Assembly (NCBI RefSeq): GCF_001462455.1
Contig: NZ_LNTD01000069.1
Span: 1 to 33,726, forward strand
From: Cellulomonas sp. B6
GTDB taxonomy: Bacteria; Actinomycetota; Actinomycetes; Actinomycetales; Cellulomonadaceae
Reading direction: 5' to 3'
Length of the DNA: 33,726 nucleotides
Made by a program: the position numbers and the translations under genes
Part shown: positions 17,405 through 27,834 of the stretch, piece after piece
How the letters are laid out: every line of letters starts with the position of its first letter
How positions within the stretch are numbered: position 1 is the stretch's first letter
The notes under the pieces: generated by a model
What the model was told of the DNA's origin: nothing
The model's database searches: none
Seen by the model: only the letters and a program-made list of their open reading frames with translations

Positions 17405-17526
17405 CGCGAGGACAGGTCCGGTGACGGCGGCGTCGCCCGCCGTGCGGGACGTGCCCGCGGGACTGTCGGTGGGTCCCGGTAGGACAGGTGTCCGTCGGGT
17501 GCGGGCGAGCAGGAGTGGGTGACGGG

Positions 17527-18903
17527 TTGACCATCGAGGACCTCGAGTACGGCGCGCCGCCGGACAGCGGGAACCGGGGCGGCGGGTTCGACCGCACGCC
17601 GCCGCAGGACCTCGACGCGGAGCGGTCGGTGCTCGGCGGCATGATGATCAGCAAGGACGCGATCGCCGACGTCATCGAGCAGGTGCGCGGCACGGACTTC
17701 TACCGCCCCGCGCACGAGTCGATCTACGACGCGATCATCGACCTCTACGGCCGCGGCGAGCCCGCCGACGCCATCACGGTGTCCGACGAGCTGACCAAGC
17801 GCGGCGAGATCACGCGCATCGGCGGGGCCGCGTACCTGCACACGCTCATCGCGTCCGTGCCGACGGCTGCCAACGCGGGCTTCTACGCGCGGATCGTGCG
17901 CGAGCGCTCCATCCTGCGCAAGCTGGTCGAGGCCGGCACGCGCATCGTCCAGCTCGGCTACGCGACCGACGGCGGGGACGTCGACGAGCTCGTGAATAAC
18001 GCGCAGGCCGAGGTGTACGCGGTCACGGAGCGACGCGCGTCCGAGGACTACCTGCCGCTGTCCGAGGTCATCGGCGGCACGGTCGACGAGATCGAGGCCG
18101 CGGGGCACCGCGGCGAGGGCATGATCGGCGTGCCCACGGGGTTCTCGGACCTGGACCGGCTGACCAACGGGTTGCACCCGGGGCAGATGATCGTGATCGC
18201 AGCGAGGCCGGCAATTGGCAAATCGACCGTGGGAATCGACATTGTCCGATCGGCGGCCATCAAAAATGACATGGCTGCAGTTGTTTTCTCACTCGAGATG
18301 AGCCGCAACGAGATTGTCATGCGTCTTCTCTCGGCCGAGGCCCGGGTCCATCTGCAGAAGCTGCGCACCGGCTCGATGGGTGAGGAGGACTGGGCGAAGA
18401 TCGCCGCGACCATGGGCCGCATCAGCGAGGCCCCGCTGTTCATCGACGACTCACCCAACATGTCCCTCATGGAGATCCGCGCCAAGTGCCGGCGCCTCAA
18501 GCAGCGCCACGACCTCAAGCTCGTCGTCATCGACTACCTCCAGCTCATGACGTCGGGCAAGCGCGTCGAGTCCCGTCAGCAGGAGGTCTCGGAGTTCTCG
18601 CGTGCGCTCAAGCTGCTCGCCAAGGAGCTCGAGGTCCCCGTCATCGCGATCTCGCAGCTGAACCGTGGGCCTGAGCAGCGGACGGACAAGCGGCCGGCGA
18701 TGAGCGACCTTCGTGAATCCGGGTCAATTGAGCAGGACGCAGACATGGTCATTCTTCTGCACCGCGAGGATGCGTACGAGAAGGAATCCCCGCGAGCGGG
18801 GGAAGCCGACCTCATCGTCGCCAAGCACCGTAACGGCCCCACCGACACCATCACCGTCGCGTTCCAGGGGCACTACTCGCGGTTCGTCGACATGCAGATG
18901 TAG
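17527..18903 (+). CDS. dnaB: Replicative DNA helicase DnaB
   Basis: A 458-residue hexameric fork helicase. The N-terminal domain (about 20-125: PPQDLDAERSVLGGMM, then FYRPAHESIYDAI) is followed by a RecA-like core with Walker A ARPAIGKST (226-234, Lys232), Walker B LKLVVIDYLQLM, SQLNRG and DLRESGSIEQDADMV. It is intact and intein-free. TTG 17527 (L-T-I-E-D-L) follows AGGAG at 11 nt; GTG 17488 (471 residues) and GTG 17515 are alternatives. Two stretches have codon use unlike the rest of the gene: about 18199-18345 over the P-loop (45 G+C in the 90 nt 18211-18300; AAA, ATT, AGG, TTT codons) and about 18711-18805 over ESG/SIEQ. These coincide with the known DnaB intein sites. Confidence 0.96.
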   Translation: MTIEDLEYGAPPDSGNRGGGFDRTPPQDLDAERSVLGGMMISKDAIADVIEQVRGTDFYRPAHESIYDAIIDLYGRGEPADAITVSDELTKRGEITRIGGAAYLHTLIASVPTAANAGFYARIVRERSILRKLVEAGTRIVQLGYATDGGDVDELVNNAQAEVYAVTERRASEDYLPLSEVIGGTVDEIEAAGHRGEGMIGVPTGFSDLDRLTNGLHPGQMIVIAARPAIGKSTVGIDIVRSAAIKNDMAAVVFSLEMSRNEIVMRLLSAEARVHLQKLRTGSMGEEDWAKIAATMGRISEAPLFIDDSPNMSLMEIRAKCRRLKQRHDLKLVVIDYLQLMTSGKRVESRQQEVSEFSRALKLLAKELEVPVIAISQLNRGPEQRTDKRPAMSDLRESGSIEQDADMVILLHREDAYEKESPRAGEADLIVAKHRNGPTDTITVAFQGHYSRFVDMQM

Positions 18904-19092
18904 CTGCGACTGTTGTCGTTCGTCGAGTTCGGGAATCGACGGGTGTTGTAAAAATAGCCGGGGAGGATCGGCCTCTAGGGCGGGATTCTGGGAATGTCGC
19001 GGCCCTGCGGTGGTCGCGATGCGGGCGGCCCGCCGCCGTTGGTGAAGACACAGGACGACGGTGTCCTCCACTTCAGCGCTCGGCCGCGGCTC

Positions 19093-19572
19093 CTACGTGC
19101 TCAGCGCACGGCGCGCACGCGACGCAGTGCGTCCGAGTAGATGCGCACACGCCACGCCGCGCGTCGGAGCTGGTTCAGGGAGCTCGTTCGCGAGGTCTTG
19201 TGCGCGTGTAAGCGCCCCGGTCGCGCCAGCGTCGTCGTCAGGGTAGGTGCCCAGCGAGACCAGGTCATCACCGAGCGAGCCGGCCCCCGGGAAGACGTCC
19301 TCGGCCGCGGCCCAGCTGACGCGAGGCCGCGCGCGTCGCACCGAGCGTCTGGCGTCGACGGCGAGCTGGGTGGTCGTCGCCCAACACCAGCCCGTGACCG
19401 TGCGGCGAAGCGGTCGACGGCCGACCTGGCCAGCCCCATCCGTCGCGGTCAGCGCAAGGCTCTGTCGAAGTTGGGCGCGCTCGAGGTCCGCGTCGGTCCG
19501 GCAGGGAGCGACCTGATTCTGGAGCGCTCTGAGGAAGGCGCTCCACGCCACGACAGCTGCGATCCGGCTCAC
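19093..19572 (-). CDS. Hypothetical protein, weakly supported
   Basis: An open frame of 159 codons with a balanced amino-acid composition (acidic DDLVSLGTYPDDDAGA segment, basic RRSVRRARPRVSW) and mixed, lower-GC codons like other genes of the island. No family is recognised. GTG 19572 has only a weak purine-rich site upstream. The plus strand also has an open frame here (19141-19641), but its product is Arg/Pro-rich and looks like a shadow. The gene could be real, a decayed remnant, or non-coding; nothing nearby clarifies it. The 189 nt between the dnaB stop and 19093 hold a short AT-rich stretch (TGTAAAAATAG) and nothing recognisable. Confidence 0.35.
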   Translation of the reverse strand: MSRIAAVVAWSAFLRALQNQVAPCRTDADLERAQLRQSLALTATDGAGQVGRRPLRRTVTGWCWATTTQLAVDARRSVRRARPRVSWAAAEDVFPGAGSLGDDLVSLGTYPDDDAGATGALTRAQDLANELPEPAPTRGVACAHLLGRTASRARRALST

Positions 19573-19755
19573 ACCGGAACGTCACCCTGGACAGCCGATT
19601 CCCAACAGATTCTGTGCGAGGGGAGGAGGGCGGACCGTTGATCCTCGTCACTGAAGATGCAGATCGGGCAAGTTCTACCTGGTGCCGCGTGCCTCACGTG
19701 TGTCGGGAGGGCGAGCTAGCAGCCTGCTGAACTGCCGGTGTGGCATGTTGTGCCC

Positions 19756-20296
19756 ATGAACCGGGAGCTGGCGGCCACGGTCCTGGTGGCTCTTGCTGGG
19801 CTGGGTGCGACCGTGCTCACGGCGGCGCAGGCGCGGAAGCACGCCGAGCGCCTTGCGGCCCAGAACTACCGACGCGAGCGAGCGTGCAGAGCGCCTCCGT
19901 CAGGACCGCCTTGGCGTGTATGCCAACGCCCTGGGGCACGCCGTCAACGAGGAGCGGAGACTCAACGCGGTCTGGGCATACGACGGCGACGGCGGTTTCG
20001 AGCTGTCGCCCCAGCCCGCCGGTGAGCCCCTGTCTCTGGCTTCCATGGACGAGATAACCGTTCGGATGCGTCTCGTGGCTGATGCAGACGTCGAAGCAGC
20101 CTGGGCAGCGTTTGTCAGAGCGTGGAATGTCTACTACTTCTGGGGCAACGTCGAAGGCGGGCCCCCGGACCAAGACCCGCCCGAGACGGTCGTCCAACCC
20201 TTGCGAACCGCGATCGATGCTCTAAAGCTTGAGTGCCGGCGCTCGCTTGAACAGGACGGGGATTCTCGGACCGAACGCGGCGCCGCGCTGACGTGA
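19756..20296 (+). pseudogene. Membrane-anchored coiled-coil protein, frameshifted by a 4-bp duplication
   Basis: From ATG 19756 the first frame encodes an N-terminal membrane span (ELAATVLVALAGLGATVL) and the start of a charged helix (RKHAERLAAQNYRRER). The protein continues in another frame as RAERLRQDRLGVYANALGH, then a soluble domain with WAAFVRAWNVYYFWGNVEGG, ending at 20296. The break is at the tandem GAGC-GAGC at 19876-19883: removing one GAGC joins the frames seamlessly as NYRRER-AERLRQDR. So this is a single gene of about 178 codons disrupted by a 4-bp tandem duplication, by mutation or by sequence error. No family is recognised. Confidence 0.7.
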
Positions 20297-20498
20297 GCCT
20301 GCAGGAGCAGGCGCGGATCGGCGTCCTGGTTTGATGGCGAGCTCTGGCCCTGAGTCTGTCGGTCAAAAGTGGGACTGTCCGCTCGCAGTCAATCATTTCT
20401 GCATATCGACAAATAGTTCGACCAGCCAGCGTTGATAGTCCGAATAGACGAGTTTCCAGCATGGCGCGAACCCGCCTGTCGAGACGAGGATCCGGAGC

Positions 20499-21284
20499 AT
20501 GAGCCCACCGCCCCAGTACACGGACAACCATCCTGCTGAAGCTGAGGGTGCCGCTGTCCTGCAGCAGCTCTTCGCTCGCCTGGACGCAGCGGAGGCGCGT
20601 TGCGACGCGTTCACCGTGCGTCCCGGCAGCGTGCTCGAAGGCGACGACCGGGCGACCGCGTACGACCCGATCTCCTACCAGGTGCGGTTCCTCTTCATCG
20701 CGGCGTTCGATCACGCCAACACCTTCCGCAGGACCCTGGTCGATCACGGGATGCCCACCGTCGGTGCGTACCCGTTGGTGAGGGCCTCACTTGAATCCGC
20801 TGCGCAGGTCCTGTGGCTAACCACGGGCGGAACCCGGAAGAAGCGAGTGTTCCGGGCTCTGCACCGCGTGTGGGACGAGGCAAGGTTGAGCGACGTCGCG
20901 CTACGGCACTTCGCCCCCGAACGGCCGTCCTCGCTTCCCAAGCTGCGCGAACGCCTCGACGAGCTCCTCGATGCCGCCCGGGTAGGGCAACGCAGCCTCG
21001 ATCGCCCGCACCCGTCGATGACGGACGTCGTCACCGACGCGGGTCGGCACCTGCAGTCGCGGCGCTTCAAGCCCATCGATGTGTGGCGTCTGTGCTCGTC
21101 GATGGCTCATGGAAACCGAACGGTGTCGCTGGCGGTACTGGAGAGTCGACTGCACGGCGGCGTGACAGACACCGGGGCGACGTACCTGATGACGACCTCA
21201 TACCGTGTGATGGCGGTGTTCGTCGAGGTCGTGGTCGTTGTGATCGAAGCGGCACTCGATGCCCAGGACCGGCTCAACGAGTAG
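20499..21284 (+). CDS. Hypothetical protein of the accessory island
   Basis: A 261-residue, mostly helical soluble protein. Features are YDPISYQVRFLFIAAFDHAN, AYPLVRASLESAAQVLWLTT, a basic RKKRVFRALHRVWDEARL, and a C-terminal valine-rich helix (VMAVFVEVVVVVIEAALDA). The PLVRASLES...W pattern recalls families of uncharacterised all-helical proteins such as DUF5677, but I cannot place it firmly. ATG 20499 follows GAGGATCCGGAG. The 202-nt gap upstream has an AT-rich stretch (20390-20420, AATCATTTCTGCATATCGAC) that may hold its promoter. Confidence 0.7.
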   Translation: MSPPPQYTDNHPAEAEGAAVLQQLFARLDAAEARCDAFTVRPGSVLEGDDRATAYDPISYQVRFLFIAAFDHANTFRRTLVDHGMPTVGAYPLVRASLESAAQVLWLTTGGTRKKRVFRALHRVWDEARLSDVALRHFAPERPSSLPKLRERLDELLDAARVGQRSLDRPHPSMTDVVTDAGRHLQSRRFKPIDVWRLCSSMAHGNRTVSLAVLESRLHGGVTDTGATYLMTTSYRVMAVFVEVVVVVIEAALDAQDRLNE

Positions 21285-21467
21285 TAGCCAGCCATCGATG
21301 GTCACGCGGTGCCGAACGAGGTGCTCCCAGCCCAGTTCCCTCGGGTTGCTCGGGATGCCTTTGGGCGCCGACATCAGGTGCGTGGGGTCAGAGTGGGTCC
21401 ACAGAATCGCCCGTGCGACTGCGCGCGATCCGGACCGGGGCGGGTGCCAGATCGCTACGGTGCGGCC

Positions 21468-22727
21468 ATGCCGTTCACGCCGATCCACCGTGCTCTGGGG
21501 GCCGAACCCAGCGACATCACCGTCGAGCTGCTGCGTCAGGCCGCAGCGACAGGCGTCCCCGAGACAGCAGACCTGGAATGGAAGCACACCTACAACCACC
21601 ACAACCCTCGCGGTCGCGACGAGCTCGCGAAGGACATCGCTGCCATGGCGAACAGCGGCGGCGGGACCATCGTCTACGGGGTCGCGGAGGATCCTGATCG
21701 TAAGGACCTGGCTGGTGACGTCGTCGGTACGAGACTGCCGGACGGCCTCGACCAGATGTTGCATCAGGTCGCGTGGAACGACCTTCGGCCGTCCTTGAGC
21801 GGGATCCACCACACAGTCGTGCCGATCGAGGGTGACCTGAGCGTCTTGGTTGTCGAGGTGCCGGGCAGCCCCGACGCCCCTCACCTGGTGATGCGCGAGC
21901 AGCAGGACGACCGGCGGTTCCTGGCGCCGCAGCGCGCCGGGGCGCACACGGTGTTCATGACCGAGCGCGACCTCGAGCGGGCCTATCGCGAACGGTTCAC
22001 TCGCTACCAGCGCACCGAGCAGACGGTAGACCGGCTGTTCGAGCAGGCCAGCAGAGAGACTCACCGGGACAAGGTGCGGTTCGTCGGGGTCGCGGTACCC
22101 CACGCACCTGTGGGCCGCGGTCGGATGGAACGACGCGCGGCCCGCGAGATCGTCAACACAGCCCAGTCGAGCGTCAACGACCTGCTCGACGACGGCTGGT
22201 CCGACGCAGTGGAGCTCGCGCTCGGCGGGTGGGACGTCCGCAACCGGCTGCGGCGGTGGACGCACTCGCGCCGCCGGCACGACCAGCGGGTTCCGGAGCG
22301 GATCGTCAGCGTCCACTTCGACGGGGCGATCGCGCTGACCTTCGACGTCGACATCAACCAGCCGTTCGAGGTGTCGTCGCCGTACATGGAGGCGCTTCTG
22401 GCCTCGGTGCTCTCGCTGAGTCGTGCGTCCGGACAGCGCCTGTTGTACAGCGGACTCGTCGAGATCAAGGTCGGCCTCGTGTGGGACGACCCGGAGCAGA
22501 ACGTATGGGTCCTCCCACAGGCGCACGCGTGGCGCGGGTCGAGCAGGCTCGATGGCGTCCCCACGGCCCAGTTCGAGCCGTTGATCGCCACGGTTCCGCT
22601 GGACGTCGACGGCGAGGCGTTCATGGTCCTGACGCGCGAACTCGCGCTCGACCTGGTGAACATCGGCGGCGTGACCCGTCTGTACGCACTGCGAGAACCC
22701 GAGACGACGAGCGCCCCACCCAGGTGA
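21468..22727 (+). CDS. AlbA_2 (Schlafen-type) domain protein
   Basis: A 419-residue protein. Residues 20-150 are a Schlafen AlbA_2 domain: TADLEWKHTYNHHNPRG with the acidic/basic E37-W-K39 pattern, then ELAKDIAAMANSGGGTIVYG. This domain binds nucleic acid and in some members cleaves RNA; it is frequent in mobile and defence islands. The remaining 250 residues are less familiar: a charged helical part (RTEQTVDRLFEQASRET) then strands such as RIVSVHFDGAIALTFDVDI. ATG 21468 is chosen because the AlbA_2 domain begins just after it; the ribosome site is weak. It is convergent with the ASCH gene. Confidence 0.8.
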   Translation: MPFTPIHRALGAEPSDITVELLRQAAATGVPETADLEWKHTYNHHNPRGRDELAKDIAAMANSGGGTIVYGVAEDPDRKDLAGDVVGTRLPDGLDQMLHQVAWNDLRPSLSGIHHTVVPIEGDLSVLVVEVPGSPDAPHLVMREQQDDRRFLAPQRAGAHTVFMTERDLERAYRERFTRYQRTEQTVDRLFEQASRETHRDKVRFVGVAVPHAPVGRGRMERRAAREIVNTAQSSVNDLLDDGWSDAVELALGGWDVRNRLRRWTHSRRRHDQRVPERIVSVHFDGAIALTFDVDINQPFEVSSPYMEALLASVLSLSRASGQRLLYSGLVEIKVGLVWDDPEQNVWVLPQAHAWRGSSRLDGVPTAQFEPLIATVPLDVDGEAFMVLTRELALDLVNIGGVTRLYALREPETTSAPPR

Positions 22728-22824
22728 CGGCCGGAGCCGCTGGGCTGAGATGCTCGGGAGCGTGCCGGTCTTCCCGTCCACGAACCCGACCTCAATGCGC
22801 GGCGGATGCCGGTCACTGTTGTCG

Positions 22825-22838
22825 GTCCTCGCGAGGAC
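22825..22838. repeat. 14-bp perfect palindrome
   Basis: GTCCTCGCGAGGAC, in the convergent gap between the AlbA_2 and ASCH genes. The 182-nt gap (22728-22909) holds no other recognisable signal. It may be a weak hairpin or a protein site. Confidence 0.4.
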
Positions 22839-22909
22839 TCGCTTTGATGGCGTCGCGCCCGGTAGATCTACTCCTCACCGGGCTTCACAGTCTGCTCTTC
22901 TTTGTCCTC

Positions 22910-23335
22910 TCAGCGCGTGGCGGCGAGCTCGTCGTGCAGACGAGCCTGCGTGTCTCCCTGGGGTCCGTGCGGGTTCAGAGTGAGGTAGACGAAGCTCTGC
23001 GGAGCCGGAAGAGACGGGTCGATCTCGGCGAGGGTCAGCGGCCTAGCCAACCGGCGTGCGTCTCTCACGCGGATGCCCACCGCGGAGCCCGCTCCGCGGT
23101 AGTAGTCGCGGTAGCCAGTCCGCGAGATGCCGGCGTGCCCCTTGTGGCGCTCCCACACTGCGGTCGGGGAGGCGATGTCGTAGCCGCCGACCTCGAAGGC
23201 ACCGATGACCCGTCCCACCGGCATCGTGGCGTAGATGAGCACGGTGGTGACGTCCGGCGCCAGCCGTCGCTTCCGAAACTCGACGAGCTTGGTGCCATCA
23301 AGGATCGCCTCCGCGAACCGCGGCTTGATCGACAT
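22910..23335 (-). CDS. ASCH-domain protein
   Basis: A 141-residue PUA-like protein. The N-terminus MSIKPRFAEAILDGTKLVEFRKRRL is the diagnostic ASCH start (SIKP...I..G.K..EFRKR), followed by a YATMPVGRVIGAFEV strand and the end of the barrel (PQSFVYLTL). ASCH proteins bind RNA or modified nucleosides, and the E. coli member YqfB hydrolyses N4-acetylcytidine. ATG 23335 shares one base with the TGA of the PIN-GNAT-EVE-like gene upstream (TGATG), so it is translationally coupled to it. This strongly suggests a shared function. The precise activity is unknown. Confidence 0.85.
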   Translation of the reverse strand: MSIKPRFAEAILDGTKLVEFRKRRLAPDVTTVLIYATMPVGRVIGAFEVGGYDIASPTAVWERHKGHAGISRTGYRDYYRGAGSAVGIRVRDARRLARPLTLAEIDPSLPAPQSFVYLTLNPHGPQGDTQARLHDELAATR

Positions 23336-24912
23336 CACTGCGACGCGGCCAGCTGCTGGTGCACCCACGGTCGTCCTCCTTCGTCTACTTCGGTGATGCT
23401 TCGCGGTGCGCCGTTGAGCACGCCCATCAGCATGAGGGTCCTGAGTGACACGGGCGGGTCGAGCATCCGGTCTTGCCGAAAGATCATCGCGTGCAGCTCG
23501 CGGTGCTCGAGTGCCATCAGCGACAGGTCCCGCGGGGTGTACACGGTGCGGCGGCCGACGAACCGCCGGATGGACTCGGGGTCGCCCGAGACGTGCACAT
23601 CCTCCACCACGCCGACGACAGTGACGGCCCGGAGATCGGCGGACCGGTAGAACAGCACGGTGTCCCCCGCGCCGATCCGCCGGGAGTTGGTACCGCTGAC
23701 GTACGCCTTACGGAGTGCGTTGCCGTACGCGTGGGTACCGGTCCACAGACCCAGCCCCATCGTGAAGTCGGGGAAGAGCGCGTCGTGCCAAATCGGCACG
23801 ACCGGCACGACGAACGCGCGGGCGTCGGGGTGGATGAATGGCGGTCCGTGCCTCCGGTGGGCTGCGAGGGGATCGGTCTCCGTAGGGTCGGCCGGCCGGC
23901 GGTGCTTGACCAGGATCAGCTCTTCGTCGTCGGTCCGTGGAGCGTTGTGCCGGACGAAGCCGAAGTCTTCCAGGAGCTCGATCAGCCGGTCCTGCTTGGG
24001 GTACGTCGTGACGAACACCGTGTCGTGGGCGCCAGCGTGCATGTGACCGAAGAGCGCTTTGAGCAGGAGCTCGCCGTAGGCGCGGCCAAAGGCGTGCGGT
24101 GCAACCTTGAAGGTGCAGAGCTTCAGCACCTTGCCGGGGAACGGCGTCGTACCAGCCTGCTCGTCCTTGACGATCATCAAGGCGCCGTAGCTGCCGCCCT
24201 CGACCTCGATGACCCAGGAAGGCCGTCCGGGTGCGATCTTCACCTTCGCGAACCAGTCGTCGAACCCGTCATAGTCCTCGCGCAGGGAGTCGAAGATCGG
24301 GTCGTGCGGGTCGAGGTTGTACGTGCGCACGGGCGTGACCGCGGGTGGCGGCGTGCTGGCCCGGGGCGTGAGTCGGCGCAGGAAGGCGACAGCCTCGACG
24401 ATGGTGAGCACGCGCTCGCCCAGCCCGGCGCGGACACCGCGGCGCCGCAGTCGGTTGTCCTGCGTGACGAGGAAGTCGACGGCGCCCACCCACAACGCGG
24501 CGAGCATCTCGAGGTCGACGTCGTTGTTCGAGTGACGCCCGGGCGGTGGGGCCGGCTCGCCGAGTGCCTCCAGCAGGTCGCCGGGAGGGGCGATCGGGTC
24601 GAGATGTAGATACTTCCCCGCGAGTGCATGGTTCGCCCGCCGGCGGTCCAGCTGCGGATCACGATCGATGTCATGAGCCGTGCCGGCGGACAGGTAGAAC
24701 CTGTGGTCGCCCTGCTGCGCGAGCCGGACAAGGTCTGCCGCATCGGGCAAGTCCGCCTGGAACGACGGCGATGTTGGTTCGAGGGCGATGAACGCATTGG
24801 TGTCGAGGAGCAGCGCAAAGCGCGAGGCGGCCTTCGCGCTCGTGTCGTTCACCTCCGCAGGATCTCGGTCACTGGCGTGCAGGCATACGAGGACACGCCG
24901 ACCGGGGTGCAC
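23335..24912 (-). CDS. PIN nuclease - GNAT - EVE/PUA-like fusion protein
   Basis: A 525-residue three-part protein. Residues 33-185 form a PIN domain: LLLDTNAFIAL (D37), NNDVDLEMLAAL (D131, D133) and LVTQDNRLRRRGV (D152) give the acidic nuclease site. Residues 215-340 look like a GNAT acetyltransferase (VIEVEGGSYGALMIV, then APHAFGRAYGELLLKALF, then LIELLEDFGFVRH). Residues 395-510 resemble an EVE/PUA-like barrel (SRRIGAGDTVLFYRS, then VTVVGVVEDVHV). GTG 24912 has GGTGGG upstream; GTG 24852, just before the PIN domain, is an alternative. It is coupled by TGATG to the ASCH gene. The set suggests an RNA-targeting toxin or defence module, with acetylation as modifier; this is inference. Confidence 0.8.
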   Translation of the reverse strand: MHPGRRVLVCLHASDRDPAEVNDTSAKAASRFALLLDTNAFIALEPTSPSFQADLPDAADLVRLAQQGDHRFYLSAGTAHDIDRDPQLDRRRANHALAGKYLHLDPIAPPGDLLEALGEPAPPPGRHSNNDVDLEMLAALWVGAVDFLVTQDNRLRRRGVRAGLGERVLTIVEAVAFLRRLTPRASTPPPAVTPVRTYNLDPHDPIFDSLREDYDGFDDWFAKVKIAPGRPSWVIEVEGGSYGALMIVKDEQAGTTPFPGKVLKLCTFKVAPHAFGRAYGELLLKALFGHMHAGAHDTVFVTTYPKQDRLIELLEDFGFVRHNAPRTDDEELILVKHRRPADPTETDPLAAHRRHGPPFIHPDARAFVVPVVPIWHDALFPDFTMGLGLWTGTHAYGNALRKAYVSGTNSRRIGAGDTVLFYRSADLRAVTVVGVVEDVHVSGDPESIRRFVGRRTVYTPRDLSLMALEHRELHAMIFRQDRMLDPPVSLRTLMLMGVLNGAPRSITEVDEGGRPWVHQQLAASQ

Positions 24913-25175
24913 GTTCCCACCGCCGATGCCCTACGTGGAAGCGTCAGAAGCTTGCATGATGGTGCCTCGACCCCCTGTGCGACATCTATGGCCGATAGGG
25001 CGTGAGAAGGCGGGTTCCCAGGCTGGAGTCCACGACGTTCCCCAGAAACGCGACGATGCTGGTCAGATTCCGTCCAGACCCCAGCCTCGGCACTGCTCGC
25101 ACGATCGGCATCCGCAGCGGATCGCGTCGATCACCGTGCAGCTCGTGTGGAGCTCTGCCGATCGCCCGTGGACGG

Positions 25176-25181
25176 CATACT
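25176..25181 (+). promoter_or_regulatory. -10 candidate for the first Y RNA
   Basis: CATACT ends 8 nt before the first base of the Y1 terminal helix (25190), the spacing expected for a -10 and a start at the helix. No convincing -35 is seen. The rest of 24913-25189 shows no gene or other signal. Confidence 0.4.
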
Positions 25182-25189
25182 GGCGGCTC

Positions 25190-25351
25190 GGCCCGGGCGG
25201 GCCGAAGGCCATCGGTGATCTGGATCCGCGGGTCGAGGGTTCGAGCCCCTCCGGCGTCTCGGCGTCGTAGCTCAGTGGTAGAGCAGCGGACGGCGCACCG
25301 CCCCGTCAGGGGCGGCGGCGTTCCGGCGGCCACCCCACGCCCGCCCGGGCC
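25190..25351 (+). ncRNA. Y RNA 1 with complete permuted tRNA mimic
   Basis: About 162 nt. Terminal helix of 13 bp (25190-25202 with 25339-25351); internal loop CGAA (25203-25206) opposite ACCCCAC (25332-25338); second helix GGCCATCGG (25207-25215) with CCGGCGGCC (25323-25331; one A/C mismatch). Then TCCGC/GCGGA (25225-25229 with 25286-25290, in the place of the anticodon stem) and a T-arm GAGGG-TTCGAGC-CCCTC (25235-25251). An acceptor-like stem CGGCGTC/GGCGTCG (25252-25258 with 25261-25267, two G-U pairs) is closed by TC, followed by T8-A9 (25268-25269) and a D-arm GCTC-AGTGGTA-GAGC (25270-25284). A further hairpin with a GTCA loop lies at 25298-25315. The T-arm precedes the D-arm, so this is not a tRNA gene; the layout matches bacterial YrlA-type Y RNAs, and rsr lies downstream. 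Confidence 0.85.
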
Positions 25352-25460
25352 CCTGCGAGCAGGTCGCTCACCCGCCCGTGTGACGTCTCCGGAAAAAGCC
25401 CTGCGCCCCGCCTGTGTAGACCCCTACAGTCGTCGACGACAACAGCACACGGAAAGACTT

Positions 25461-25585
25461 GGGTGGGCCGGCGACCGTCGGTTACCACTGTGGATGGCCA
25501 GGTCGCGGGTTCGAGTCCCGCCGTCATCTCTGATGACGTAGCTCAGACGGTAGAGCAGGACTCCGGCGTCATCACACGCCCACCC
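25461..25585 (+). ncRNA. Y RNA 2 with complete permuted tRNA mimic
   Basis: About 125 nt. Terminal helix GGGTGGGC (25461-25468) with GCCCACCC (25578-25585), where a T-A pair replaces a C-G pair of Y1. Internal loop CGGC (25469-25472) opposite ATCACAC (25571-25577); second helix GAC(C)GTCGG (25473-25481, one bulged C) with CCGGCGTC (25563-25570). The tRNA-like part has T-arm GCGGG-TTCGAGT-CCCGC (25505-25521), a perfect 7-bp acceptor stem CGTCATC/GATGACG (25522-25528 with 25532-25538) closed by TCT, T8-A9 (25539-25540), and D-arm GCTC-AGACGGTA-GAGC (25541-25556). The AGGTC before the T-arm equals a standard tRNA variable loop. The 109 nt between Y1 and Y2 may hold a promoter (TACAGT 25425-25430). 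Confidence 0.85.
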
Positions 25586-25595
25586 GAGCCTCCCC

Positions 25596-25717
25596 GGAGC
25601 GGGCCGAGGTGTCTTCGGTTACCTGGTGATGGCAGTGCGGGTTCGAGTCCCGACCCCTCGGGGTGCTGCCCGGCGGCGTCAGCCGCCGTACCGGAGCCAC
25701 GACCACACGCCCGCTCC
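25596..25717 (+). ncRNA. Y RNA 3 with degenerate tRNA mimic
   Basis: About 122 nt, starting 10 nt after Y2. Terminal helix GGAGCGGGC (25596-25604) with GCCCGCTCC (25709-25717); internal loop CGAG (25605-25608) opposite GACCACAC (25701-25708); second helix GTGTCTTCGG (25609-25618) with CCGGAGCCAC (25691-25700; one mismatch, one wobble). The T-loop TTCGAGT (25642-25648) is kept on a 4-bp stem. The acceptor equivalent is shortened to ACCCC-TC-GGGGT (25653-25664). The D-arm is replaced by a long hairpin around CGGCGGC-GTCA-GCCGCCG. So the common module is conserved while the tRNA-like part has diverged. Confidence 0.75.
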
Positions 25718-25722
25718 ACCCA

Positions 25723-25849
25723 CGTCGGGGCGGTGGCGGGCCGGAGCGCATCGGTTCTCTCTCTCCCCGTGGACGCCCTTGTGAGGAGGGCACCCCGGTT
25801 CGCCGGGGATCCACCCGGTGCGCACAACACGCCCGCCACCGCCCCGACG
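25723..25849 (+). ncRNA. Y RNA 4 without tRNA mimic, abutting rsr
   Basis: About 127 nt, starting 5 nt after Y3 and ending 22 nt before the rsr ATG. The terminal helix is 19 bp and perfect (25723-25741 with 25831-25849). Internal loop CGGA (25742-25745) opposite ACAACAC (25824-25830); second helix GCGCATCGG (25746-25754) with CCGGTGCGC (25815-25823, one wobble). The apical part is a three-way junction: GTGGA/TCCAC (25769-25773 with 25810-25814), hairpin GCCCT-N7-AGGGC (25775-25791) and a UUCG-capped hairpin CCCCGG-TTCG-CCGGGG (25793-25808). No T-arm or D-arm is present. It may be an independent RNA or the structured leader of rsr. Confidence 0.7.
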
Positions 25850-25871
25850 ACCGACTGAGAGGACACGACCG

Positions 25872-27470
25872 ATGGACGTGCTGCGCACGCTCGGGCTGCG
25901 GCGCACGCCGCAGGGCGAGCGCGCCGACACCCGCCAGGAGCTGAACGCCGCCGGTGGCTACGCGTTCGTGCTCGACGACGTCGCCCGGCTGCGGCGCTTC
26001 CTGACCCTCGGCGTGGACGGCGGCACCTACTACGCCGCGCCGCGCGAGCTGGCGCGGGAGAACGCCGAGGTCGTCGGGCGGATGGCCCACGAGGACCCCG
26101 AGACGCTGGTCAGCACCATCGTCGACGTGTCCGTGCGTGGCGCCGCGCCGCGCCAGAACCCCGCGCTGTTCGCCCTGGCGTACGCCGCGTCGGTGCCGGA
26201 GTCGGCACCGCTCGCGCTCGCGGCGCTGCCGGCCGTCGCCCGGACCGGGACGCACCTGTTCCTGTTCGCGGGCTACGTCGAGCAGTTCCGCGGCTGGGGT
26301 CGGGGTCTGCGGCGCGCCGTCGGTGGTTGGTACACGTCCAAGGACGCCGACGCCCTCGCGTACCAGGCGGTCAAGTACCGCCAGCGTGAGGGCTGGTCGC
26401 ACCGCGACCTGCTGCGCCTGGCGCACCCGACGACGGCCTCGCCGGAGCTGCGGGCGACGTTCGACTGGATCGTCCGCGGTGCGGTCGGCGACGCGACGCC
26501 CACGCTCGTCGAGGGTTTCATGGCGGCGCAGGCCGCCACGGACACCGCGACGTGGGCCGACCTGGTGCGGCGGCACCGGCTGTCGTGGGAGATGCTCCCC
26601 GACGCGGCGCTGGGCGAGGTCGCGGTCTGGGACGCGCTGCTCGACGTCGGCGTGCCGCAGACGGCGCTGATGCGTCAGCTGCCCCGGCTCACGCGGCTCG
26701 GCGTGCTCCCGGACCTCGGCGGCCGGACCGACGAGGTCGTCACCCAGCTGGTCGACCCCGACCGGCAGCGGTCGGCGCGCGTCCACCCGGTCAGCGTGCT
26801 CGTGGCGCAGCGGACGTACGCCTCCGGGCGGTCGGCCCGCGGTGCCGGCGAGTGGACGCCGAGCCGGAAGGTGACCGACGCCCTCGACGCCGCGTTCTAC
26901 GCGGCGTTCGGGGCCGTCGAGCCCTCCGGGAAGCGCACGCTGCTCGCGGTCGACGTCTCGGGCTCGATGGGTGTGCCGATCTCGGGCATGCCGATCACGG
27001 CGCGCGAGGCGTCGGCCGCGCTGGCCCTGGTGCAGCTCGCGACCGAGCCGGCGGCCACCGCCGTCGGCTTCACCACGCGGTCGGGCAGCAGCGGGTGGAA
27101 CGACAGCACGCTGCGGCCGCTCGCGATCTCGCCGCGGCAGCGGCTCGACGACGCCCTGCGCGTGGTCGACGCGATGCCCATGTCCGGCACGGACTGCGCG
27201 CTGCCGATGGCGTGGGCGACCGAGCAGGGCGCCGAGGTCGACACGTTCGTGGTCTACACGGACAGCGAGACCTGGGCCGGCAAGGTGCACCCGCACCAGG
27301 CGCTCGCCGAGTACCGGCGGCGGTCCGGGATCGACGCGCGGCTCGTGGTCGTCGGCATGACGGCGACGGGCTTCTCGATCGCCGACCCGTCGGACGCGGG
27401 GATGCTCGACGTCGTCGGATTCGACGGCGCGGTGCCCTCGCTCGTCACGGAGTTCGCGCGTGGCCTCTAG
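25872..27470 (+). CDS. rsr: TROVE/vWA-domain RNA-binding protein, Ro60 orthologue
   Basis: A 532-residue Ro-sixty-related protein. Residues about 15-345 form the TROVE HEAT-repeat ring that binds Y RNAs and misfolded RNA ends (QELNAAGGYAFVLDDVARLRRFLTLG near the start, GGTYYAAPRELARENAEVV, then VKYRQREGWSHRDLLRLAHP). Residues 350-532 are a von Willebrand A domain with the MIDAS motif DVSGS (Asp361, Ser363, Ser365), SGTDCALPM and VVYTDSETW. The length fits Ro60. ATG 25872 follows GAGAGGA at 8 nt and lies 22 nt after Y RNA 4. In other bacteria Rsr with Y RNA helps RNases in rRNA maturation and RNA decay under stress. No RtcB/RtcA genes are adjacent. Overlaps the next small gene. Confidence 0.95.
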   Translation: MDVLRTLGLRRTPQGERADTRQELNAAGGYAFVLDDVARLRRFLTLGVDGGTYYAAPRELARENAEVVGRMAHEDPETLVSTIVDVSVRGAAPRQNPALFALAYAASVPESAPLALAALPAVARTGTHLFLFAGYVEQFRGWGRGLRRAVGGWYTSKDADALAYQAVKYRQREGWSHRDLLRLAHPTTASPELRATFDWIVRGAVGDATPTLVEGFMAAQAATDTATWADLVRRHRLSWEMLPDAALGEVAVWDALLDVGVPQTALMRQLPRLTRLGVLPDLGGRTDEVVTQLVDPDRQRSARVHPVSVLVAQRTYASGRSARGAGEWTPSRKVTDALDAAFYAAFGAVEPSGKRTLLAVDVSGSMGVPISGMPITAREASAALALVQLATEPAATAVGFTTRSGSSGWNDSTLRPLAISPRQRLDDALRVVDAMPMSGTDCALPMAWATEQGAEVDTFVVYTDSETWAGKVHPHQALAEYRRRSGIDARLVVVGMTATGFSIADPSDAGMLDVVGFDGAVPSLVTEFARGL

Positions 27471-27834
27471 GTCCCCGCGCGGGCCCGACGCGCCGGCCCG
27501 GGGCGGCCCCGATCACGGGGCCGCCCCGCGGTCGTCGCCTGCACGACCGACGTCCGACCTGTCCGCGGGTGCACGGGCGGCGCCCCCACCTGCGGACGCT
27601 CCCCGGCGGACGCCCCGTCGGGGCACCTCGGACCCCCGCGCCACCCGGGCGCGCGAGCTCCACCGCAAGGCCGCCGACGCGGACGAGGTCGCCGCGCGGT
27701 ACCGCCGGGAGCGCGACCGGCTCGTCCTCCAGCTCCGCGCCGAGGACCCCGCGCGGTGGAGCTACTCCGCGATCGCGGACGCGCTGGGCTGCAGCCCGGA
27801 GCTCGTCGCCCTCGTCGTGCGTCGCTCCCGCTGA
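27460..27834 (+). CDS. Small basic protein with C-terminal helix-turn-helix-like end
   Basis: The 124-residue product begins with a Pro/Arg/Ala-rich, probably disordered 60 residues, then a charged helix (TRARELHRKAADADEVAARY), and ends with YSAIADALGCSPELVALVVR, which has the spacing of a helix-turn-helix. No named family is recognised. GTG 27460 has GGAG about 8 nt upstream and starts inside the last codons of rsr (11-nt overlap), so it is translationally coupled to the TROVE protein. It may be an accessory or regulatory factor of the Rsr/Y RNA system. The low-complexity first half makes the start uncertain. Confidence 0.6.
   Translation: MASRSPRGPDAPARGGPDHGAAPRSSPARPTSDLSAGARAAPPPADAPRRTPRRGTSDPRATRARELHRKAADADEVAARYRRERDRLVLQLRAEDPARWSYSAIADALGCSPELVALVVRRSR

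What the first reader, a model, noticed from the sequence alone, without database searches (positions are those of the whole stretch)
25190..25717. Circularly permuted tRNA mimics in Y-like RNAs upstream of a Ro60 (rsr) gene
In Y1 and Y2 the order is T-arm, 7-bp acceptor stem closed by a 2-3 nt loop, U8-A9, then D-arm. Every tRNA tertiary-contact element is there (TTCRAxY T-loop, GG in the D-loop, UA at 8-9, AGGTC variable-like bases), but in permuted order and with the anticodon side open to a long helix. Bacterial YrlA RNAs are known tRNA mimics bound by Rsr; an array with two full mimics and one decayed mimic is not something I know described. Standard tRNA finders would miss or miscall them.
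Basis: partly seen in the sequence, partly recalled or inferred. Interest (0 to 1): 0.9.

Follow-up and report, generated by a model that had tools for sequence, protein, structure and literature searches.

The report
Four-RNA Y array beside Ro60 gene
Upstream of a bacterial Ro60 (rsr) gene lie four small RNAs sharing one protein-binding stem, two carrying a rearranged copy of the tRNA elbow, one only the top half of a tRNA and one none; the rearranged mimic is a known kind of bacterial Y RNA, while the third type and the resemblance of the shared stem to worm Y RNAs look new.

Summary
Y1 (25190-25351) and Y2 (25458-25588), upstream of an intact rsr gene, carry T-arm, 7-bp acceptor stem, U8-A9 and D-arm in circularly permuted order. 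In 103 such mimics from rsr loci all 7 acceptor pairs covary, and so does the tertiary Levitt pair 15-48 (G-C 63, A-U 33). The permutation itself is published (YrlA-type Y RNA, PDB 6CU1), so the headline is a known kind.

(2) Y3 is not decayed: T-arms without the standard D-arm recur in 52 of 123 distinct other Y RNAs. (3) All four share one Rsr-type module. The nematode Y-RNA model, run through 30 rsr-bearing genomes, has 26 of 27 matches at E<=0.21 on such RNAs at rsr, though none in the window's own genome; vertebrate and Deinococcus models have none there. A palindrome lies upstream of rsr in 27 of 80 loci. Expression, Rsr binding and function are inferred.

The parts
25168..25182 (+). Y1 promoter-like element GTGGACGGCATACTG (-10-like CATACT, 25176-25181)
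   Evidence: Sequence; the same 15 bases stand upstream of Y1 in L005 and L006, variants in L008 and L009. The sigma-70 scan finds no consensus promoter in 24900-27700.
25190..25351 (+). Y1: Y RNA with full permuted tRNA mimic, about 160 nt
   Evidence: Perfect 13-nt end arms; R2 29.0 bits at 25192-25349
25235..25284 (+). Y1 permuted mimic core: T-arm, acceptor, U8A9, D-arm
   Evidence: R1 59.4 bits (this row is in the model); Rfam YrlA 41.4 bits
25415..25428 (.). Operator-like palindrome TGTAGACCCCTACA overlapping a TACAGT -10-like box upstream of Y2
   Evidence: Only place of TGTAG-N4-CTACA in the 4.04-Mb genome; TGTAR-N4-YTACA within 1 kb upstream of rsr in 27 of 80 loci, in the downstream control stretch in 0 of 80
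25458..25588 (+). Y2: Y RNA with full permuted tRNA mimic, about 125 nt
   Evidence: R2 48.5 bits, E 1.5e-7; GGGTGGGC/GCCCACCC stem 25461-25468/25578-25585
25505..25556 (+). Y2 permuted mimic core
   Evidence: R1 67.9 bits (this row is in the model); Rfam YrlA 43.8 bits
25594..25719 (+). Y3: Y RNA with T-arm but no D-arm
   Evidence: R2 25.5 bits; 13 further rows with the same layout in A4
25631..25670 (+). Y3 top-half module: GGCAG/CTGCC helix enclosing T-arm (25637-25653) and hairpin CCCC-TC-GGGG (25654-25663)
   Evidence: Sequence; conserved in A4; only the T-arm matches R1, 16.5 bits, E 0.16
25723..25849 (+). Y4: Y RNA without tRNA mimic, 19-nt end arms, 3' end 22 nt before rsr
   Evidence: fold z -5.39; R2 65.9 bits (this RNA is in the model); nematode sbRNA model RF01656 30.0 bits, gathering 38
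25872..27470 (+). rsr (Ro60 orthologue), 532 aa
   Evidence: Pfam TROVE 9.9e-43 and vWA_Ro60 1.2e-61; D. radiodurans Rsr 2nvo_A E 1.9e-115; NCBIfam Rsr 509 bits, below its cut-off of 900

Best explanation
This is an rsr operon with a tandem set of four Y RNA scaffolds. Each RNA has the same basal, bulged helix, which Rsr is expected to bind, and a different exchangeable effector module at the far end: two permuted tRNA elbows of YrlA type (Y1, Y2), one tRNA top-half (T-arm plus acceptor-like hairpin, Y3) and one non-tRNA hairpin module (Y4). Shown here: the sequence elements, the conserved helices, the tertiary covariation, the linkage to rsr, and recurrence of the four-part layout in relatives. 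Inferred: transcription from the promoter with the palindrome (Y2-Y3-Y4-rsr as one transcript, Y1 from its own), excision of the RNAs from the leader, Rsr binding, and recruitment by the modules of T-arm or elbow binders and exoribonuclease to Rsr. The last step is by analogy with YrlA, described as a substrate of DusA and TruB and a tether between Rsr and PNPase (PMC8394870 passage).
For: rsr identity. Permuted mimic: 97.5% of cells paired, 7 of 7 acceptor and 4 of 5 T-stem pairs with two-sided changes, covariation 0.555 against 0.139 shuffled (rows had passed a pairing threshold). With selection by motif only: 6.19 of 7 acceptor pairs against 3.71 shuffled, 133 hits on + and 0 on - strand, in 111 of 160 loci. 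Levitt pair; 12 of 14 independent pairs co-change (median of 200 pairings), 0 opposite, p 0.0005. Basal stem: 10 of 11 pairs with two-sided changes in 115 Y RNAs (alignment fitted to the model). Four Y RNAs in the window. Layout in relatives.
Against: No expression data. Both YrlA matches are below Rfam's gathering score, and none of 19 further rsr loci reaches it either. Single-sequence folds of Y1-Y3 are only mildly better than shuffles, and the Y2 minimum-energy fold lacks the T-arm. rsr is in only 10 of 81 genomes of the genus. Y1 or Y3 is missing, cut short or reduced to a stub in 4 of the 8 close loci read by eye, the window among the 8 (L004, L006, L007, L008). R1 also scores up to 52.6 bits on a junction between two adjacent tRNA genes (G026:C1, L199), so the mimic model alone is not specific.
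Confidence: 0.84

Rival explanations
1. The region is mainly a cis-acting leader of rsr: Rsr binds the Y modules in its own mRNA and so limits its own synthesis, and the RNAs are not released.
For: Y4 ends 22 nt before the rsr start codon; Y2-Y3-Y4 are separated by only a few nt; in five relatives the Y4 place is reduced to a plain hairpin that is still kept in front of rsr (L029, L030, L031, L032, L033; read by eye).
Against: Modules are conserved as separate units with their own end stems; Y1 has its own promoter-like element; characterised bacterial Y RNAs are small RNAs bound to Rsr in trans (PMC8394870, PMC7790460 passages). The two readings are compatible.
Confidence: 0.25
2. The mimics are remnants of a tRNA cluster: junctions between decaying tandem tRNA genes.
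For: R1 does match junctions between adjacent tRNA genes, up to 52.6 bits and 44.9 and 40.6 bits in L203 and L202, so this is a real look-alike and a possible origin.
Against: No anticodon arms and no ARAGORN tRNA; acceptor closed by 2-3 nt; two-sided changes and Levitt covariation point to present selection; Rsr-module stems enclose each unit.
Confidence: 0.03
3. Y3 is a decaying Y RNA of this lineage without its own function.
For: Cut short in L006 and reduced to a stub in L007 and L008, absent in L032; within A4 pairs with two-sided changes are few, 4, reached by 97 of 500 shuffles.
Against: Conserved with the same layout in 14 rows from several genera; a T-arm without the standard D-arm recurs in 52 of 123 distinct non-mimic Y RNAs against at most 3 in 200 shuffles, with 37 different stem pairs; 48 remain when 4 with another D-arm are taken out.
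Confidence: 0.12

Closest known systems
YrlA (Rfam RF02553), the tRNA-mimic class of bacterial Y RNAs
   Same: rsr neighbour, 5'-3' end stem, T-arm / acceptor hairpin / UA / D-arm in permuted order; the Rfam alignment covers the module. Circular permutation reported for PDB 6CU1 (PMC11472068 passages).
   Different: Scores 43.8 and 41.4 against gathering 69; the basal stem sequence is of another type; two mimics plus two other Y RNAs in one array. Y3 and Y4 had no YrlA match at E<=10.
Salmonella rsr-yrlBA-rtcBA operon
   Same: More than one Y RNA gene beside rsr (PMC7790460 passages).
   Different: There two Y RNAs, after rsr by operon order, with rtcBA and RtcR control; here four upstream of rsr. 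I did not search the window for rtcBA; the 8 ORFs that I scanned with Pfam included none.
Nematode stem-bulge RNAs (Rfam RF01656 ceN72-3_ceN74-2), homologues of vertebrate Y RNAs
   Same: Basal bulged stem and UUAUC-type start of the loop (GGTTAYC); in 30 rsr genomes 26 of 27 matches at E<=0.21 lie on the rsr-linked Y RNAs, two above gathering.
   Different: Window Y4 scores 30.0 against gathering 38; no match in the window's own genome; effector modules differ.
Vertebrate Y RNA (RF00019) and Deinococcus Y RNA (RF01053)
   Same: Partner is a Ro60 or Rsr protein (established knowledge).
   Different: Neither model has a match on the rsr-linked Y RNAs of the same 30 genomes (2 and 10 weak matches, all elsewhere).
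Tandem tRNA genes
   Same: The junction of two adjacent tRNAs reads T-arm, acceptor strands, D-arm.
   Different: Anticodon arms and tRNA calls on both sides.

Membership tests
YrlA-type Y RNA (Y1, Y2) | Encoded near an rsr (Ro60) gene | tested here: met
YrlA-type Y RNA (Y1, Y2) | Permuted tRNA-like domain: T-arm, acceptor stem, D-arm | tested here: met
YrlA-type Y RNA (Y1, Y2) | Large stem formed by 5' and 3' ends | tested here: met
YrlA-type Y RNA (Y1, Y2) | Rfam RF02553 gathering score (69 bits) | tested here: not met
   43.8 and 41.4 bits; hence not filed as a member of the Rfam family, only as the same kind of RNA
YrlA-type Y RNA (Y1, Y2) | Bound by Rsr; D and pseudouridine in D- and T-loops | not testable with these tools
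   needs pulldown and modification mapping
YrlA-type Y RNA (Y3) | Full permuted tRNA-like domain with D-arm | tested here: not met
   R1 matches the T-arm only, 16.5 bits; so Y3 is not filed as YrlA
Nematode sbRNA RF01656 (Y4) | Gathering score (38 bits) | tested here: not met
   30.0 bits; relatives do pass: L074 38.9, the genome of L076 42.0
Nematode sbRNA RF01656 (Y4) | Bulged basal stem and UUAUC-type loop start | tested here: inconclusive
   met by the group; window Y4 itself reads GGTTCTC at that place
tRNA gene | Cloverleaf with anticodon arm | tested here: not met

The most novel reading that the evidence does not exclude
Actinobacterial Y RNAs and animal Y/sbRNAs descend from one Ro60-bound RNA that carries GGnCCGR..GGUUAYC..CACnnCC, against the view quoted in PMC4726728 that bacterial Y RNAs are not homologous to vertebrate ones. 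On this common handle bacteria exchange effector modules: permuted tRNA elbow, a tRNA top-half class without D-arm, mimics of other tRNA types in phages, or none. They deploy several at once as an array, often behind one conserved palindromic promoter.
Probability: 0.4. Interest if true: 0.8.

Novelty: new variant of a known kind. Interest (0 to 1): 0.57.

Why it matters
The permuted tRNA mimic is known, but this array offers one operon in which the same presumed Rsr handle carries three kinds of head on four RNAs. That makes it directly testable which protein each head recruits and whether the tRNA elbow, the T-arm alone or neither is needed. The match of the nematode Y RNA model to rsr-linked bacterial Y RNAs gives a concrete handle on an open question: whether Ro60 and its RNA were inherited together across bacteria and animals. 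The Levitt-pair covariation is evolutionary evidence for a tRNA-like tertiary fold in a permuted RNA.

Tried and rejected
Rejected: tRNA genes or tRNA pseudogenes (covariation); two-Y or three-Y reading (four found); Y3 as plain decay.

Led nowhere or weak: the consensus promoter and terminator scan found none in 24900-27700. Covariation inside the close Y3 family is too low to prove its helices. The hairpin-after-T-arm test gave a mean of 6.8 against 4.9 bp in shuffles, suggestive only. The nematode model over the genus, with strict filters, gave 3 of 81 genomes, none at an rsr locus, the best (28.5 bits, E 0.0016) in a genome without rsr; 1 of 14 control genomes rang. In one search it found nothing in 9 of 30 genomes, the window's own among them, only off-locus matches in 2 more, and 3 of 14 controls rang below the cut-off. 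The Methylobacterium array L116 has no such match at E<=1. The YrlA model over the genus is unspecific below about 35 bits (78 of 81 genomes and 11 of 14 controls ring). Apparent arrays of permuted mimics in G051:C33 and G052:C69 proved to be mostly junctions in ordinary tRNA clusters. Pfam on 8 ORFs showed no obvious regulator for the palindrome.

Limits of the counts: my regex classes M, T and 0 are approximate; the stricter structural test passes only 61 of 89 M-class RNAs, so some T-class RNAs may hide a D-arm. Of 104 mimic rows I left 3 out of A2 without examining them (two in L178, one in L194); rows with acceptor loops over 9 nt were also excluded. A2 rows had been chosen with a pairing threshold; one search repeats the test without it, but its 133 hits include a few in phage tRNA clusters. 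Before the tree one short protein (L087) was dropped, one mimic per locus was used, and 86 of 89 rows bore both traits. A5 came from 69 of the 80 named loci. The 29 genomes besides the window's own were chosen by me from the 80 named loci.

Chen 2014, Sim and Wolin 2018 and Wang 2018 are not held, so what they say about arrays is recall, not reading. Of the papers cited I saw passages only. Literature was searched.

Full report
What is there. The window belongs to a Cellulomonas-like genome: its rsr protein is 96% identical to that of C. iranensis NBRC 101100 (L037). The gene at 25872-27470 encodes Rsr: TROVE and Ro60 vWA domains, best solved relative D. radiodurans Rsr, 2nvo_A, E 1.9e-115. 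The 700 bases before it hold four RNAs on the plus strand. A covariance model of the common basal module (R2, built from 25 Y RNAs, Y4 among them) finds them at 25192-25349, 25458-25588, 25594-25719 and 25731-25841 with E 1.7e-4, 1.5e-7, 6.1e-4 and 2.6e-10; the best minus-strand score is E 0.084. End stems: perfect 13-nt arms for Y1 and 19-nt arms for Y4. ARAGORN finds no tRNA.

The permuted mimic. Y1 (25235-25284) and Y2 (25505-25556) read T-arm, acceptor 3' strand, 2-3-nt loop, acceptor 5' strand, UA, D-arm. Rfam YrlA aligns to both (43.8 and 41.4 bits, E 2.9e-8 and 1.5e-7), below its gathering score of 69; 19 further rsr loci have no YrlA match at gathering either. I fetched 80 named rsr loci and 80 loci on viral contigs. 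By motif alone 133 plus-strand and 0 minus-strand candidates occur in 111 of 160 loci, and their acceptor strands pair at 6.19 of 7 positions against 3.71 when shuffled among loci (maximum 4.02 in 1000 shuffles). In 103 aligned mimics 97.5% of cells pair; all 7 acceptor pairs and 4 of 5 T-stem pairs show two-sided changes; the D-stem never varies (the rows had passed a pairing threshold).

Tertiary covariation. In tRNA, base 15 in the D-loop pairs with base 48 before the T-stem (Levitt pair, established knowledge). Here these bases stand in permuted order. Of 103 mimics 63 are G15-C48, 33 A15-U48, 3 A-C, 1 G-U, and 3 other or gapped; Fisher p 8e-22 without correction for kinship. On a FastTree tree of the rsr proteins (89 rows, 86 with both traits) 14 independent pairs on supported branches differ in base 15; base 48 goes the same way in 12 (median; range 10-13 over 200 pairings) and the other way in none, sign test median p 0.0005. 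Bases 46 (G in 100 of 103) and 47 (T in 92 of 103) also keep the tRNA variable-loop pattern. Window Y1 and Y2 are both G-C.

The common handle. R2, searched in 69 of the 80 named loci, gives 115 matches at E<=0.001 from 62 loci. In them 10 of 11 basal pairs change on both sides and 94.0% of cells pair (the alignment was fitted to the model). GGGCCGRA, TCGGTTAYC and CACGCCC are strongly conserved, CGGTTAYC in 106 of 115. Over the window and all 80 loci R2 has 185 matches at E<=0.1, all on the plus strand; two are in the window, Y2 and Y4. A regex count gives at least one Y RNA in 70 of 80 named loci, at least two in 53 and at least three in 25; 5 reverse-strand hits in all 161 sequences serve as control.

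Y3 is a type, not a ruin. It keeps the T-arm and a CCCC-TC-GGGG hairpin inside a GGCAG/CTGCC helix, with no D-arm; R1 matches the T-arm only (16.5 bits, E 0.16). The same RNA is present with this layout in 13 other rows from several genera, though too conserved for strong covariation. Across all loci 52 of 123 distinct Y RNAs without the standard mimic carry a T-arm, against a mean of 0.4 and a maximum of 3 in 200 shuffles of their inner parts; they use 37 different stem pairs, and 46 of 52 have a hairpin of 5 bp or more close behind the T-arm, though shuffled sequence gives hairpins of 4.9 bp on average. Four of the 52 carry another kind of D-arm and are permuted mimics too, which leaves 48; the test for a D-arm misses about a third of known mimics (61 of 89 pass), so the true number may be lower. 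T-arm plus adjacent hairpin is the top half of a tRNA, so I read this as a second effector type.

Layout in relatives. All four units occur in L003, L005 and L009 besides the window; L004 and L007 lack a complete Y1, L006 has a truncated Y3, L007 and L008 a Y3 stub. Of eight loci from other genera of the family (L027-L034) seven keep Y3 and L032 lacks it; the Y4 place may be a plain hairpin (L029-L033) or even a full mimic (L034, read by eye). So the heads appear to be exchanged on a stable handle. rsr is patchy: 10 of 81 genomes of the genus, 16 of 200 in a draw from the family.

Link to animal Y RNAs. The nematode sbRNA model RF01656 gave Y4 30.0 bits (E 6.6e-4), three of the four Nocardia terrae units 27.5 to 36.3 bits and one Nocardia flavorosea unit above gathering (1 of 19 loci examined). 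Searched through 30 whole rsr-bearing genomes (the window's own and 29 chosen by me from the named loci) it matches 21 at E<=1; of 27 matches at E<=0.21, 26 lie on Y RNAs of the rsr locus, in 19 genomes, two of them above gathering. The vertebrate model RF00019 (2 weak matches) and the Deinococcus model RF01053 (10 weak matches) have none on those RNAs. Against: nothing in 9 of the 30 genomes, the window's own among them, and only off-locus matches in 2; 3 of 14 control genomes ring below the cut-off; 3 of 81 genus genomes under strict filters, none at rsr; none in the Methylobacterium array L116. A review states that bacterial Y RNAs are not homologous with vertebrate Y RNA clades, and that UUAUC in the loop is shared by sbRNAs and vertebrate Y RNAs (PMC4726728, passages). 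A shared site kept for one protein family, by descent or by convergence, is the safe reading; common descent is the bold one.

Promoter. TGTAGACCCCTACA (25415-25428) overlaps a TACAGT box upstream of Y2 and TGTAG-N4-CTACA occurs nowhere else in the genome. TGTAR-N4-YTACA occurs within 1 kb upstream of rsr in 27 of 80 loci, upstream of at least one Y RNA in all but L071, and in 0 of 80 downstream control stretches, some of them shortened by contig ends. In several loci it fills the spacer behind a TTGACA-like box (read by eye). No regulator was identified.

How it most likely works. Rsr binds each basal module; the heads decide what else joins. By the reviewed model YrlA is modified by TruB and DusA, its basal stem holds Rsr and its tRNA-like domain PNPase, for decay of structured RNA (PMC8394870 passage). 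Y1-Y2 would offer an elbow, Y3 only a T-arm minihelix, Y4 neither. An alternative role, decoy for a tRNA nuclease, is suggested for Salmonella in PMC7790460 (passage). None of these steps was tested here.

Novelty. The permuted mimic and several Y RNAs per operon are known kinds (PMC11472068, PMC7790460 passages). From memory only, Chen 2014 reports that at least one Y RNA per species has the tRNA-like domain, implying others without it. In the held library, searches with YrlA, bacterial Y RNA, Rsr, UUAUC and actinobacterial names listed no paper whose title or shown start of abstract describes a D-arm-less Y RNA type, the palindrome, or the nematode-model match; the main papers of the field are not held, so this is weak evidence of absence.

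Noticed in passing
25415-25428 and 27 of the 80 loci L037-L116: Palindrome TGTAR-N4-YTACA upstream of rsr in 27 of 80 loci and in 0 of 80 downstream controls; likely operator of an unknown regulator.
   Followed up: partly
L117:913-1038, L119:2734-2857, L124:1877-2004, L133:2469-2597: Y arrays on viral contigs contain permuted mimics with D-arms of other kinds, as if different tRNAs were imitated; which tRNAs is recall, not tested.
   Followed up: partly
L197:1573-1624, L198:1524-1578 (-), L202:2690-2746 (-): Permuted mimics (57.4, 49.2 and 51.7 bits) with no R2 stem and no tRNA call on them. The genomes of L197 and L198 have no TROVE match, that of L202 has rsr on another contig.
   Followed up: partly
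L199:1460-1513, L202:11823-11877, L203:2244-2300: Junctions of adjacent tRNA genes imitate the permuted order and score 52.6, 40.6 and 44.9 bits with R1; a trap for searches and a possible origin of the mimic. Many similar scores near 52 bits were not checked one by one.
   Followed up: partly
L029-L034 upstream of rsr: The Y4 place is reduced to a plain hairpin just before rsr in L029-L033, while in L034 it carries a full mimic (by eye): outer stem kept, inside exchanged.
   Followed up: no
window 17488-25190 against L037: In C. iranensis the array (without Y1) follows a helicase-like reading frame with intein-like end motifs (by eye, not tested); in the window dnaB (17488-18900) is separated from the array by about 6 kb including a Schlafen AlbA_2 gene (21309-22724).
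   Followed up: no
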